DNA of 64,000 bases from Prolixibacter sp. NT017. Its GTDB lineage: Bacteria > Bacteroidota > Bacteroidia > Bacteroidales > Prolixibacteraceae. How positions within the stretch are numbered: position 1 is the stretch's first letter; every line of letters begins with the position of its first letter. The position numbers and the translations under genes were made by a program. Of this stretch, positions 19,801-50,050 are shown piece by piece. Below the pieces are notes generated by a model that saw only the letters and a list, made by a program, of their open reading frames with translations, did no database searches and was not told the origin of the DNA. The DNA lies in the NCBI RefSeq assembly GCF_009617875.1, contig NZ_BLAV01000001.1, positions 3,720,001-3,784,000 on the forward strand, in the 5' to 3' direction.

Positions 19801-21189
19801 TCAGAACATCGGGTCCCACGGCGGCAGCATTTCTGCTTTTTCGCTCCAGGCTTTCAATGTTTTGCTATCGAGATATTTTTTGTTGATGACAAACCGGAAC
19901 ATGTATTGATTGAACCAGTTGTCGGTAAACGTCAGGTAACCGTGGTAATCAGAATCCGGGCCCCAGCTGTTTTCAAACTGCCACTTGGTGGGTTTTCCCT
20001 GGTCATTCACATCAACGGCAATCAGTGCCATTCCGTGCGACGAACCGCTTTCTCCCGTTAGGATACGCTGCTTCTTATCCATGCCGAATTTCACACCGTA
20101 AACCGCTCCATAGTCGTAATTCTCGGTAGACAATACGCCTGAACCTTTTACGTAGAAAGCACCAACATCGCAGGAAGCATACATCGGTTCGTTGTTTTTA
20201 ATCGACTCGATGGCAAACTGCTTGATGACATCGTTCGGGAGGTTCACATAGTTCCAGTTGATGCCTTCCTCGGTATTGCGGTAATTCTCGATTTCGTAGT
20301 GTTTGTAATACGGGCGCGTCGGGTCGTTCATCAGCATCACGTATTCCGACAGTTTGATATCACCCAAAACTTCATCGCGGAATTGCTGCGGTGTGTAGTT
20401 TTTGTATTCCGAGAGATTACCGTCTTTATCCTTGTATCTCCAACGGAACTGTTCCGGCGGATTTCCCAGGTTCAGGGCCAGCATCCGGTAAACGCCTTCC
20501 AGCATTTCTACCCGGCGGTTCTCTATATCAGTCTTCGATTTTTTGTCGGCTACCATCTGGCGGAGTTCCAATCCATCCTGACGCAACTTGGTCACGATAA
20601 ACTTCACCATCTTCCGGGTGTTCTCACTCGAATGAGTTTCGGGCATGGCACTCTTGGGAACCATCCCGTACTTGTTCACCAGGTTGACAAACGAGTTCCA
20701 AACGCCACCGTCGTCTACCGGCGATTTGAAATACCAGTTCACCTTCCGGCTCGTAAACGGAAGGTCAGCACTGGCAACCACGTTGTTCAGAAAGAGATTA
20801 GCCTTCTCGAAAATATCGTAGAAATAGAGGTAATTCTCCGAGAACTCAAACTCATCGACGTTGAAATGCCGCATGGCCACCGGTCGGAAGATATTCAGCG
20901 AGGTAAACATCCAGCAACGGCCCGAGCCTTTTTGGTCGGTGATGCCGGAAATATCATCTACTTTGTATTTGAAATGCTGGTCAACTTTGTCCACATTGTC
21001 GCGGTTCAGCGCCAGCTTGTTGATATCGTTGTTCGAAAGCGCATTTTCCATCGCTTTGGTGTACGAATCTTCCTTGTACGATTGTCTGATTTTCTGTAGT
21101 TGGTCTGCTGTCAGTGCCCCCGATTGAGCCCAGGCCGCTGTGGCACTCCACACTCCCAGCAACAACAGCAATGTCAGTTTTTTCATCAT
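19801..21189 (-). CDS. Secreted C1B-family cysteine peptidase (bleomycin hydrolase/aminopeptidase C-like)
   Basis: The 462 residues begin with the signal peptide MMKKLTLLLLLGVWSATAAW, then AQSG. The catalytic triad is visible: Cys in DQKGSGRCWMF (about 95), His in SSHGMALIAVDV, and Asn in FENSWGPDSDYHGY. The oxyanion Gln is in ITDQKG. The C-terminus is WDPMF; in cytosolic bleomycin hydrolase the C-terminal arm lies in the active site and sets aminopeptidase specificity. A signal peptide on this normally cytosolic family is typical of Bacteroidota homologues. The 41-bp repeat array lies 130 bases upstream. Confidence 0.92.
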   Translation of the reverse strand: MMKKLTLLLLLGVWSATAAWAQSGALTADQLQKIRQSYKEDSYTKAMENALSNNDINKLALNRDNVDKVDQHFKYKVDDISGITDQKGSGRCWMFTSLNIFRPVAMRHFNVDEFEFSENYLYFYDIFEKANLFLNNVVASADLPFTSRKVNWYFKSPVDDGGVWNSFVNLVNKYGMVPKSAMPETHSSENTRKMVKFIVTKLRQDGLELRQMVADKKSKTDIENRRVEMLEGVYRMLALNLGNPPEQFRWRYKDKDGNLSEYKNYTPQQFRDEVLGDIKLSEYVMLMNDPTRPYYKHYEIENYRNTEEGINWNYVNLPNDVIKQFAIESIKNNEPMYASCDVGAFYVKGSGVLSTENYDYGAVYGVKFGMDKKQRILTGESGSSHGMALIAVDVNDQGKPTKWQFENSWGPDSDYHGYLTFTDNWFNQYMFRFVINKKYLDSKTLKAWSEKAEMLPPWDPMF

Positions 21190-21564
21190 ATTCACTTATC
21201 GTTTTGTTTAAAGTTGAACGGTAAATATAATTATATGAAGAAACCTGTCGGGAAACTTTCGTCAGTTTTTAACTTAATGTGGCGCATTCAACCCCCAAAT
21301 GCCCGGATTTTGAGTTACTCCCGTTTTGCCGAAGTACTATTCTCATTGAATTGAAGTATCCCGGTTTCCCGGAAGGCATTCGTCACACTGAAAGAGGTGC
21401 CTCAGTTTCCGGAGGGTGTTCACCTCACTGAGATGAAGTGCCTGAGTTGCGATAGGAGACTCGTCACCCTGAAAAGAAGCTCCTCAGTTGTGGCAGGACA
21501 CTCATCACACTGAAATGAAGTGCCTCAGTTTCGGGAAGGCGTCCATCGCACTGAAACGAAACGT

Positions 21565-21661
21565 CTCAGTTTCGGGAGGACGCTTTTCACACCGAAAAGA
21601 GGTGCCTCAGTTCCCGGAGGGTATTCATCACGCTGAAGTGAAGTGCCTCAGTTTCGGGAGG
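21565..21661 (+). repeat. Higher-order repeat, copy A
   Basis: These 97 bases, spanning two full units and the core of a third, recur at 21730-21826 with three mismatches. Neighbouring units differ much more, so this is a later four-unit-offset duplication (165 bases) inside the array. Confidence 0.9.
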
Positions 21662-21729
21662 TACTAAATCAGATTTGAATTTTTTCCCTCAGTTTCGGGG
21701 AGATGTTCGTGCACGCTGCAATGAAGCGC

Positions 21730-21826
21730 CCCAGTTTCGGGAGGACGCTTTTCACACCGAAAGGAGGTGCCTCAGTTCCCGGAGGGTATTCATCACGCTG
21801 AAGTGAAGCGCCTCAGTTTCGGGAGG
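21730..21826 (+). repeat. Higher-order repeat, copy B
   Basis: Matches 21565-21661 at 94 of 97 positions by direct comparison. Similarity stops abruptly on both sides. Confidence 0.9.
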
Positions 21827-22020
21827 AGCTGCATTTAATTGCCGATGTGCTTCCCCGGTTTGAGGAAGTACGAAATCACATTCTGATTTAGTCCCTCCGT
21901 TTCCGGAAGTATTAAATCCGATCCGAATGAAGCGTCTCAGTTTCCGGGAGAATACCCGTTACAATGCGTGGAGGCGCTCCTTTGCACCTAACGGGAAAGA
22001 GACAAGGTTCAGGCAAGCAT

Positions 22021-22056
22021 AAAAAAACCCTCCGGTATGGCAGTAACCGGAGGGTT
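22021..22056 (-). terminator. Terminator after lpdA
   Basis: The perfect arms AACCCTCCGGT and ACCGGAGGGTT, with a nine-base loop; the plus-strand A7 run gives the U-run for the minus-strand transcript. It isolates lpdA from the repeat array. Confidence 0.88.
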
Positions 22057-22083
22057 CGTATCCCGATAGAATTAAATCTCTGT

Positions 22084-23475
22084 TTAAATGTGGATCACCT
22101 CGTCGAAAGCGGCAGCAGCAGCTTCCATCACTGCTTCGCTCATGGTTGGGTGCGGGTGAACCGATTTGATGAGCTCGTGACCGGTAATTTCCAGCTTGCG
22201 GGCTACTACCAGCTCGGCAATCATTTCGGTTACATTGGCACCAATCAGGTGGGCGCCGAGCAATTCGCCGTATTTGGCATCGAAAATCAGTTTCACAAAA
22301 CCGTCGGCAGCACCGGCCGATTTTGCTTTACCGGATGCCGTGAACGGGAATTTACCGACTTTCAGTTCGTAACCAGCTTCCTTCGCAGCTTTCTCGGTCA
22401 TACCGACTGAAGCAATCTCAGGGGTGGTGTACGTGTTGGCCGGAATATTTCCATAATCGAGCGGCTGCGGATTTTCACCGGCAATCTTCTCAACACAGAT
22501 AATACCTTCGGCGGAAGCCACGTGTGCCAGTGCCGGTCCGTGAACGATATCACCGATGGCATAAACACCTTCCACGTTGGTGCGGTAATAATCGTCTACC
22601 TTGATTTTACCTTTCTCGGTAGCAATCTTCATCTCTTCCAGGCCAATGCCCTCGAGGTTCGGCTCGATACCAACCGCTGAAAGTACGATGTCGGCTTCAA
22701 TCTGCTCTTCGCCTTTCTTGGTTTTCACGGTTACCTTGCATTTCTTGCCTGAAGTGTCAACCTTTTCGACCGAAGAATTCACCATTACTTTCATACCCAT
22801 TTTCTTGAACGAGCGTCCAAGCTGAGCAGCTACATCGGCGTCTTCGTTCGGAACCAGGGTCGGCATGAATTCGACCAACGTTACTTTGGTTCCGATAGCT
22901 GAATAGAAATAGGCAAACTCGCTTCCGATGGCTCCGGACCCGACAACCACCATGCTTTCGGGTTGTTTATCGAGTGAAAGAGCCTCGCGGTAACCGATAA
23001 TTTTTTTACCATCCTGCGGCAGGTTGGGCAGCTGCTTCGAGTGAGCACCTGTGGCCAACAGAATGTGCTTGGCTGTATACTTTTCTTTTTTCCCTTTGCT
23101 GTCGGTTACTTCAACGGTGTTTTTGGCAACGAGCTTTCCAAAACCTTCAATCTTTTCAACTTTATTCTTCTTGAAAAGAAACTGAACGCCGTTGCTCATG
23201 CCACCGGCTACGTCACGACTTCGTTTTACCATGCTGGTAAAATCGGCCTTGATATCGCCGTCGATGGCTACACCGTAATCGGCTGCGTGTTTGGTATATT
23301 CGAAAACCTGCGCGCTTTTCAGCAACGATTTGGTCGGAATACATCCCCAGTTCAGGCAGATTCCACCCACGTTTTCTTTCTCAACTACAGCTACTTTTAA
23401 ACCGAGCTGCGAGGCCCTGATAGCGGCAACATATCCGCCCGGACCACTTCCTATAACTAAAAGATCGTAGTTCAT
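22084..23475 (-). CDS. lpdA: Dihydrolipoyl dehydrogenase (E3)
   Basis: The 463-residue flavoprotein disulfide reductase opens with the FAD motif LLVIGSGPGGYVAAIRASQL. The redox pair is in GGICLNWGCIPTKSLL (Cys-X4-Cys). The NAD-binding VVGSGAIGSEFAYFY is near residue 180, and VYAIGDIVHGPALAHVAS follows. The dimerisation domain ends with the catalytic His-Glu in SVHPHPTMSEAVMEA. It reoxidises lipoamide in 2-oxoacid dehydrogenase complexes or the glycine cleavage system. No E1 or E2 gene lies beside it here, and it appears monocistronic. Confidence 0.96.
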   Translation of the reverse strand: MNYDLLVIGSGPGGYVAAIRASQLGLKVAVVEKENVGGICLNWGCIPTKSLLKSAQVFEYTKHAADYGVAIDGDIKADFTSMVKRSRDVAGGMSNGVQFLFKKNKVEKIEGFGKLVAKNTVEVTDSKGKKEKYTAKHILLATGAHSKQLPNLPQDGKKIIGYREALSLDKQPESMVVVGSGAIGSEFAYFYSAIGTKVTLVEFMPTLVPNEDADVAAQLGRSFKKMGMKVMVNSSVEKVDTSGKKCKVTVKTKKGEEQIEADIVLSAVGIEPNLEGIGLEEMKIATEKGKIKVDDYYRTNVEGVYAIGDIVHGPALAHVASAEGIICVEKIAGENPQPLDYGNIPANTYTTPEIASVGMTEKAAKEAGYELKVGKFPFTASGKAKSAGAADGFVKLIFDAKYGELLGAHLIGANVTEMIAELVVARKLEITGHELIKSVHPHPTMSEAVMEAAAAAFDEVIHI

Positions 23476-49845: not shown

Positions 49846-49962
49846 AACTAAATTTTTATTGGTGGAACATAAATTTATCATGAATGAATTTAGAACTTTA
49901 TTCTCAAAAATTCAATTTTTCCACACAACATAAATTTCTCAGCTATAGCAGACAAACAGCTT

Positions 49963-50050
49963 CATCAGGAAGGAAATTTACTTTCATCCCGATGGAATAA
50001 TATTTTCATCAGGATGAAAAAAAATTTCTATCAAGGTGATTTTTTTTTCA
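49963..50050. repeat. Four 22-bp phased direct repeats with A/T tracts
   Basis: CATC or TATC starts at 49963, 49985, 50007 and 50029, exactly 22 bases apart, each followed by a GA-rich piece and an A/T tract (consensus near CATCAGGATGGAAAAAAATT). The 22-base step is about two helical turns, so the tracts lie on one face and could bend DNA. The site is in the upstream region of the HU-like gene (minus strand) and downstream of the 50162 gene stop. The rest of 49846-50161 (316 bases) shows no gene. Confidence 0.75.

What the first reader, a model, noticed from the sequence alone, without database searches (positions are those of the whole stretch)
21319..22017. Non-coding array of seventeen 41-bp tandem repeats held in almost strict register
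Units diverge widely in sequence yet keep 41-base steps (two are 42) over 700 bases. A step of 41-42 bases is about four turns of DNA, so every unit would face the same side, as expected for a protein-binding array rather than neutral decay. The conserved core CTCAGTTTCGGGAGG contains CCTC/GAGG and can pair as a small hairpin in many units. The array sits between a strong lpdA terminator and the signal-peptide C1 peptidase, so it is not the tail of a gene. I do not know this repeat from any described family.
Basis: partly seen in the sequence, partly recalled or inferred. Interest (0 to 1): 0.85.

Follow-up and report, generated by a model that had tools for sequence, protein, structure and literature searches.

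The report
Forty-one-base intergenic repeat arrays
A real non-coding stretch of a 41-base sequence repeated about sixteen times, which gains and loses whole copies between sister species and belongs to a wider set of intergenic arrays in the same bacterium whose repeat lengths are nearly always close to 21 or 41 bases, for reasons not yet known.

Summary
The array is real: 14 anchored cores at 21403-21938 with steps of 41 (11) or 42 (2), plus degenerate edges. Host genus: Prolixibacter. The units form a genus-restricted family in two to four intergenic arrays per genome, at mostly conserved sites with largely species-typical units. Copies change mainly as whole units, which explains the register. 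Short indels are not clearly suppressed, and the phase drifts by about one turn, so the 'same face' argument fails. Each unit holds two quasi-palindromes about 20.5 bp apart. The one spanning the unit boundary (TTCAT-N9-ATGAA or TAAAT-N9-ATTTA) covaries, best of 1189 candidate helices. Main surprise: in 1.257 Mb sampled from this genome, 21 of 22 non-CRISPR non-coding arrays (TRF score 60 or more, period 14 or more) have periods 21-22 or 41-42, in about a dozen sequence families. Published Porphyromonas repeats of 22, 23 and 41 nt fit. Best reading: a hairpin-prone minisatellite, function not shown. Open possibility: a length rule of about 21 bp in Bacteroidales intergenic arrays.

The parts
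21302..21985 (+). 41-bp tandem array, including degenerate edge units
21403..21950 (+). 14 anchored unit cores (CAGTTTCGGGAGG-like), steps 41 or 42
21624..21642 (.). one example of dyad B across a unit boundary (columns 37-41, 9-base loop, columns 10-14 of the next unit)
   Evidence: sequence; covariation over all junctions
21646..21661 (.). one example of dyad A inside a unit (CCTC, 8-base loop, GAGG)
   Evidence: sequence; no covariation beyond shuffles
19801..21195 (-). C1-like peptidase gene (PF03051); its 5' end faces the array
22084..23475 (-). lpdA-like gene (Pyr_redox_2, Pyr_redox_dim); its 3' end faces the array
22021..22054 (-). intrinsic terminator of the lpdA side (9-bp stem, 9-base loop, T7)
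   Evidence: read directly; not listed because its loop exceeds 8
21224..21251 (-). promoter-like site between array and peptidase gene; if real, the array lies upstream of the peptidase transcript
   Evidence: 2 sites found in 21100-22130 against 0.4 expected; consensus match only, and this promoter type may not suit the phylum

Best explanation
The array is a non-coding minisatellite of a Prolixibacter family. Its unit is a pair of quasi-palindromic modules about 20.5 bp apart (dyad B, 3 bases, dyad A, 3 bases). It lengthens and shortens mainly by whole units through slippage or unequal exchange, probably helped by hairpins in single-stranded DNA. That copying, and not selection for helical phase, keeps the 41-base register while the sequence drifts. 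Arrays at separate sites of one genome tend to share a species-typical unit type, so units are probably also exchanged or copied between sites. Shown: non-coding status, whole-unit differences between orthologs, conserved sites, largely species-typical units, covariation of dyad B. Inferred: slippage and hairpin involvement, exchange between sites, absence of a selected function.
For: Gaps of 40, 41 and 83 between the window array and its P. denitrificans ortholog, 93% identity elsewhere in it, against 95% in the peptidase-side flank, 94% in the peptidase gene, 97% in lpdA and 100% of 88 bases on the terminator side. Higher-order periods: 123 in the window array, 82 and 165 in the P. denitrificans array L040. 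An array at the lpdA/peptidase site in 4 of 4 genus genomes, with 16, 11, 10 and 5 aligned rows including partial ones. Homology between different sites confined to the array (second family). Dyad B pairs better than within-array shuffles, 0.853 against 0.776, 0 of 2000 reach it, 86 junctions; first of 1189 candidate helices, z 5.67; first of 1148 after removing near-identical windows (61 of 92 kept), z 3.75.
Against: Slippage alone does not explain why arrays of different sequence in this genome almost all have periods of 21-22 or 41-42. Not all gaps are whole units: the third-site comparison P. denitrificans/P. bellariivorans has gaps of 28 and 39 and only 60% identity, below its flanks (84 and 87%). 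Hairpin energy of the window array is only z -2.0, P 0.04, against column permutations, and other arrays show none. The consensus unit is no more mirror-symmetric than shuffled units (P 0.84). With near-duplicates removed the dyad B result is only about 0.1 after correction for all helices (my estimate). Covariation may come from template-switch correction of palindromes.
Confidence: 0.6

Rival explanations
1. A DNA-level site array: a dimeric protein of the genus binds the dyads, spaced about two turns apart, and selection keeps the 20.5 and 41 bp steps.
For: Dyads about 20.5 bp apart; dyad B covaries as a symmetric protein site would; periods near 21 and 41 recur in arrays of other sequence; a mild deficit of short indels; the array lies upstream of a promoter-like site of the peptidase gene.
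Against: Phase drifts by about one turn over the array (positions); a 22-base family steps by 22 or 23, mean 22.4 over 32 steps (positions), so no common helical pitch fits; only two to four arrays of this family per genome.
Confidence: 0.18
2. A transcribed chain of small RNA hairpins (5-bp and 4-bp stems with 9- and 8-base loops) acting in an untranslated region or as an RNA sponge.
For: Whole-array RNA folding beats dinucleotide shuffles on both strands, z -4.15 and -4.63 with 20 shuffles each; dyad B covaries.
Against: Those shuffles destroy the repetition itself; against column permutations z is -2.0 (DNA parameters). G-T against A-C mismatches give no strand signal. No Rfam match. It lies after a terminator and before a promoter-like site.
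Confidence: 0.1
3. A mobile repeat: REP/BIME copied by a RAYT, or a MITE holding a minisatellite.
For: The family sits at several sites; Y1_Tnp matches exist in 4 of 4 genus genomes, 9 in G000; P. gingivalis MITEs hold 23- and 41-nt tandem repeats (PMC4596501).
Against: No shared leader or tail around arrays at different sites and no flanking terminal inverted repeats at the window site; no listed Y1_Tnp match lies within 50 kb of an array of this family (coordinates); sites are mostly shared between species.
Confidence: 0.08
4. Decayed remains of a protein-coding repeat.
For: A 123-base period is a multiple of three.
Against: The unit is 41, no ORF of 60 aa or more lies in the array, and the period holds at intergenic sites of four species.
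Confidence: 0.01

Closest known systems
BrickBuilt, a 23-nt minisatellite in a MITE of Porphyromonas gingivalis (PMC4596501; abstract, sections 5, 8, 9 and part 1 of section 7 read)
   Same: Intergenic tandem repeat in the Bacteroidia, narrow host range, whole-unit expansion and contraction at conserved loci, predicted stem-loops.
   Different: BrickBuilt has leader and tail with terminal inverted repeats and signs of transposition; none found here. Unit 23 against 41.
464/PgRS elements of P. gingivalis with 41-nt tandem direct repeats (as reported in PMC4596501, section 7 part 1)
   Same: Same 41-nt unit length.
   Different: PgRS is a MITE-like element with terminal inverted repeats; its sequence was not compared here.
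Prokaryotic satellites (PMC6749651; parts 1 and 2 of 5 of the text read)
   Same: Meets their basic definition: at least 4 tandem units of 10-200 nt.
   Different: That survey reports mostly multiples of three among long repeats; here non-coding units cluster near 21-22 and 41-42.
REP/BIME elements (recalled)
   Same: Short palindromic intergenic repeats at several sites.
   Different: Strict head-to-tail register, no Y1_Tnp gene near the arrays, mostly conserved sites.

Membership tests
Minisatellite / prokaryotic satellite | At least four head-to-tail units of 10-200 nt | tested here: met
Minisatellite / prokaryotic satellite | Copy number changes by whole units | tested here: met
   gaps of 40, 41, 83 at the window site against P. 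denitrificans, 40 at the second site; gaps of 28 and 39 in one third-site comparison
BrickBuilt / PgRS type MITE | Shared leader and tail or terminal inverted repeats around the array | tested here: not met
   between-site homology confined to arrays; the four inverted repeats at the window site are internal (1) or pair array units with the lpdA terminator (3)
BrickBuilt / PgRS type MITE | Target site duplication or empty site | not tested
   no empty site was searched for
BrickBuilt / PgRS type MITE | Sequence homology of the 41-nt unit to PgRS | not tested
   the PgRS sequence was not obtained
REP/BIME | Companion RAYT (Y1_Tnp) gene close to repeats | tested here: not met
   no listed Y1_Tnp match within 50 kb of an array of this family
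CRISPR | Conserved repeats separated by unique spacers | tested here: not met
   the whole 41-base unit is repeated
Known structured RNA | Rfam gathering-score match | tested here: not met
   0 matches in the window
Protein-binding phased array | Constant helical phase along the array | tested here: not met
   535 bp over 13 steps is about 50.95 turns at 10.5 bp, one turn short of 52; other helical pitches cannot be excluded
Protein-binding phased array | A protein that binds the unit | not testable with these tools
   needs pull-down or footprinting

The most novel reading that the evidence does not exclude
Intergenic DNA of Bacteroidales obeys a length rule: whatever their sequence, tandem arrays are built from a quantum of about 20.5-22.5 bp or its double, so some replication, repair or DNA-binding step that measures about 21 bp creates or keeps them, and the 41-bp window array is a double-unit case of it.
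Probability: 0.35. Interest if true: 0.75.

Novelty: new variant of a known kind. Interest (0 to 1): 0.5.

Why it matters
If intergenic tandem arrays of different sequence in one lineage really have only two favoured unit lengths, ordinary slippage is not enough and a length-measuring step is waiting to be found. Prolixibacter, with several array families in one genome and sister species that differ by whole units, makes that testable. If the length rule fails elsewhere, the array is still a well-defined, site-conserved minisatellite that may serve as a strain marker.

Tried and rejected
Helical phasing as the reason for the step: rejected as stated (phase drift, 22/23 steps of another family, indel counts). 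Hairpins as a universal property of such arrays: 25 arrays against column permutations gave a mixed picture (Stouffer z about -5.9, but no signal in L083, L077, L138 and others). Mirror symmetry of consensus units: not significant for most arrays, window P 0.84. Strand of a possible RNA from G-T versus A-C mismatches: no signal. An orientation rule (41-42 base arrays only between genes on one strand) held at 7 of 7 loci of the G000 sample but failed on further loci of a second 41-base family, several of them convergent or divergent by my reading of the ORFs. Y1_Tnp link: none close by. A promoter motif recalled for the phylum (TAnnTTTG): 0 exact matches in L001. The one terminator-like site listed, inside the array at 21814-21831, is at chance level (1 found, 1.2 expected). 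A TRF bias towards 21 and 41 bases: simulated recall is 0.57-0.77 across periods 17-60, without a peak there. The 64-67 base arrays of G003 (10 rows) and the 65-base array of G000 were dropped from the period counts as CRISPR-like (shared repeat). Controls outside the phylum are weak: E. coli K-12, 200 kb with 23 kb non-coding, one array at score 60 or more (period 98); two megaplasmids, 400 kb with 53 kb non-coding, none. They show low density, not a different period spectrum. A fresh G000 sample, meant as a pre-stated test, could not be fetched.

Full report
What is there. The array lies between an lpdA-like gene and a C1-like peptidase gene, both on the minus strand. Fourteen unit cores from 21403 to 21938 step by 41 (11 times) or 42 (twice). 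TRF gives period 41 and a 123-base higher-order period. Degenerate units extend it to about 21302-21985. No ORF of 60 aa or more lies inside and no Rfam family matches.

Where else it occurs. The window is part of G000, a 5.14 Mb single-contig genome. Equal contig lengths identify two sister genomes as Prolixibacter denitrificans (G002) and P. bellariivorans (G001). The repeat is found in 4 of 61 genomes searched with the array DNA, G000 included, and in 4 of 100 family genomes searched with a 41-position sequence model under stricter filters; both times these are the four genus members. In them the strong unit matches fall in four arrays (G000), three (G002, G003) and two (G001), with 150 candidates scored per genome. 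The lpdA/peptidase site has an array in 4 of 4 species. A second site, beside a DUF6261 gene (tested in G000), has one in G000, G002 and G003; a third, near gnd, in all four; a fourth was seen only in G000. Between different sites only the array is similar, not the flanks.

How it evolves. Against P. denitrificans the aligned parts of the window array are 93% identical (peptidase-side flank 95%, peptidase gene 94%, lpdA 97%, terminator side 100% of 88 bases) and the large gaps are 40, 41 and 83 bases. The second site shows a gap of 40 and 82% identity, like its right flank (83%). The third site is 80% identical between G000 and G002, but only 60% between G002 and G001, below its flanks (84 and 87%), with gaps of 28 and 39: there units were replaced by another type. 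Short indels against substitutions: arrays 9 to 340 (four comparisons), non-coding flanks 18 to 366 (six comparisons); a 5-base gap in each set comes from how I cut the ends. The register is therefore kept mainly by whole-unit copying, with at most a mild deficit of short indels. Unit types are largely species-typical across sites: CAGATTC...ATTTAG...TACTAAAT in G003, mostly CACACTG/CACGCTG...ATGAAG...TTCAT in G000 and G002, a further type with TATTTGTACAG in G001; G000 holds a few G003-like units. This suggests exchange between sites. At the second site the array is inverted in G003 relative to its flank.

Anatomy. A unit is loop B (9), arm (5), 3 bases, arm (4), loop A (8, AGTTTCGG), arm (4), 3 bases, arm (5). 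Pairing across the unit boundary (columns 37-41 with 10-14 of the next unit) is 0.853 including G-T pairs, against 0.776 in within-array shuffles (0 of 2000; 86 junctions). Pairing inside the unit near loop A is 0.782 against 0.771 (230 of 2000 reach it). In a scan of 1189 five-pair helices the boundary helix ranks first, z 5.67, distribution sd 1.33. With near-identical windows removed (61 of 92 kept) it still ranks first of 1148, z 3.75. Complementarity could mean hairpins, symmetric protein sites or palindrome correction by template switching; mismatch types do not separate these. The consensus unit by itself is not unusually palindromic, and its hairpin energy is only modestly better than column permutations (z -2.0).

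The wider pattern. I sampled 1.257 Mb of G000 (the window and 60 stretches; 163 kb non-coding by an ORF mask; TRF periods up to 150; the shorter of overlapping periods was kept if it scored at least 55% of the best). Of 23 arrays with score 60 or more and period 14 or more, one (65 bases) is CRISPR-like. Of the other 22, 12 have period 21-22, 9 have 41-42 and one has 16. At the lower cut of 45 there are 31, the extra eight having periods 14 (4), 15, 16 (2) and 20. Some rows are two or three segments of one array, and the window array is among them. Consensus comparison (60 shuffles a pair) and shared cores group them into about a dozen families; besides clear groups (L083a/b, L132a/b with L147, L077/L133/L193, an AT-rich 21-22 group) a few further weak similarities appear. 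In G003 (460 kb) the 8 non-CRISPR arrays have periods 21 (3), 41 (2), 16, 19 and 24; ten CRISPR rows were dropped. Other genera of the family gave three arrays (22, 60, 66), other families of the order six (14, 21, 22, 23, 23, 84), peptidase-neighbour loci of other genera seven (18, 21 four times, 22, 42). So the pattern is strong in G000 and only suggestive outside. Simulated arrays show no TRF preference for these periods. A second 41-base family recurs in G000, G001 and G003, with period 41 or 42 in 10 of 10 loci fetched, one being the query itself and two overlapping. In a 42-base family the motif GAAGCTC (one mismatch allowed) recurs at 21-base steps, and over eleven 41-42 base arrays lag 21 has the highest autocorrelation between lags 6 and 40, though small (0.044), so a double unit can arise from a 21-base quantum. 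A 22-base family steps 22 or 23. In P. gingivalis 41-, 23- and 22-nt tandem repeats are reported, those of 23 and 41 inside MITE-like elements (PMC4596501; abstract, sections 5, 8, 9 and part 1 of 7 read).

Reading. The window array is best seen as a hairpin-prone minisatellite kept in register by whole-unit copying. Helical phasing fails on arithmetic and on the 22.4-base family. What remains unexplained is why the unit lengths are so restricted. I saw no paper on such a restriction in the listings of seven searches of the held library, most of which were not aimed exactly at it; most subscription papers are not held.

Noticed in passing
window 49961-50027: A 22-base tandem array (3 copies, TTCATCAGGATGGAAAAATATT) with fairly mirror-symmetric units (0.73 against 0.56, P 0.06).
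   Followed up: partly
L077, L133, L140, L141, L188, L190, L193 (G000): 21-22 base arrays of G000 lie in gaps between convergent genes at 7 of 9 loci with both neighbours seen, while convergent gaps hold about 16% of the non-coding bases between ORFs. Not confirmed on fresh loci.
   Followed up: partly
L083 7305-7850; L224-L233: A second, dispersed 41-base array family of other sequence in G000, G001 and G003, without a match in G002.
   Followed up: partly
L178 15702-15930: A 42-base family whose motif GAAGCTC recurs at 21-base steps, a visible double of 21-base units; further matches in G000, G001 and G003.
   Followed up: partly
window 22024-22035 against 21409-21420, 21614-21625, 21779-21790: Three array units match an arm of the lpdA terminator as 12-base inverted repeats, 92% complementary; the terminator may have seeded the family, or this may be chance.
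   Followed up: no
G000:C1:460819, 1105662, 2091851, 2888973, 4586415, 4788800: Dispersed 22-23 base arrays with core GAGAACCGTATAAAG, also in G001 and G002, none in G003 with up to one mismatch.
   Followed up: partly
L022 3084-3118 (minus) and L030 2348-2379 (minus): Single units in inverted orientation beside the main array of the third site.
   Followed up: no
L201 (G003) and L074 870-1652 (G000): CRISPR-like arrays with closely similar repeats of about 30 bases in both genomes.
   Followed up: no
L043 5615-6009: AT-rich tandem repeats of period 21, 42 and 83 downstream of the peptidase gene of another Bacteroidales genome.
   Followed up: no
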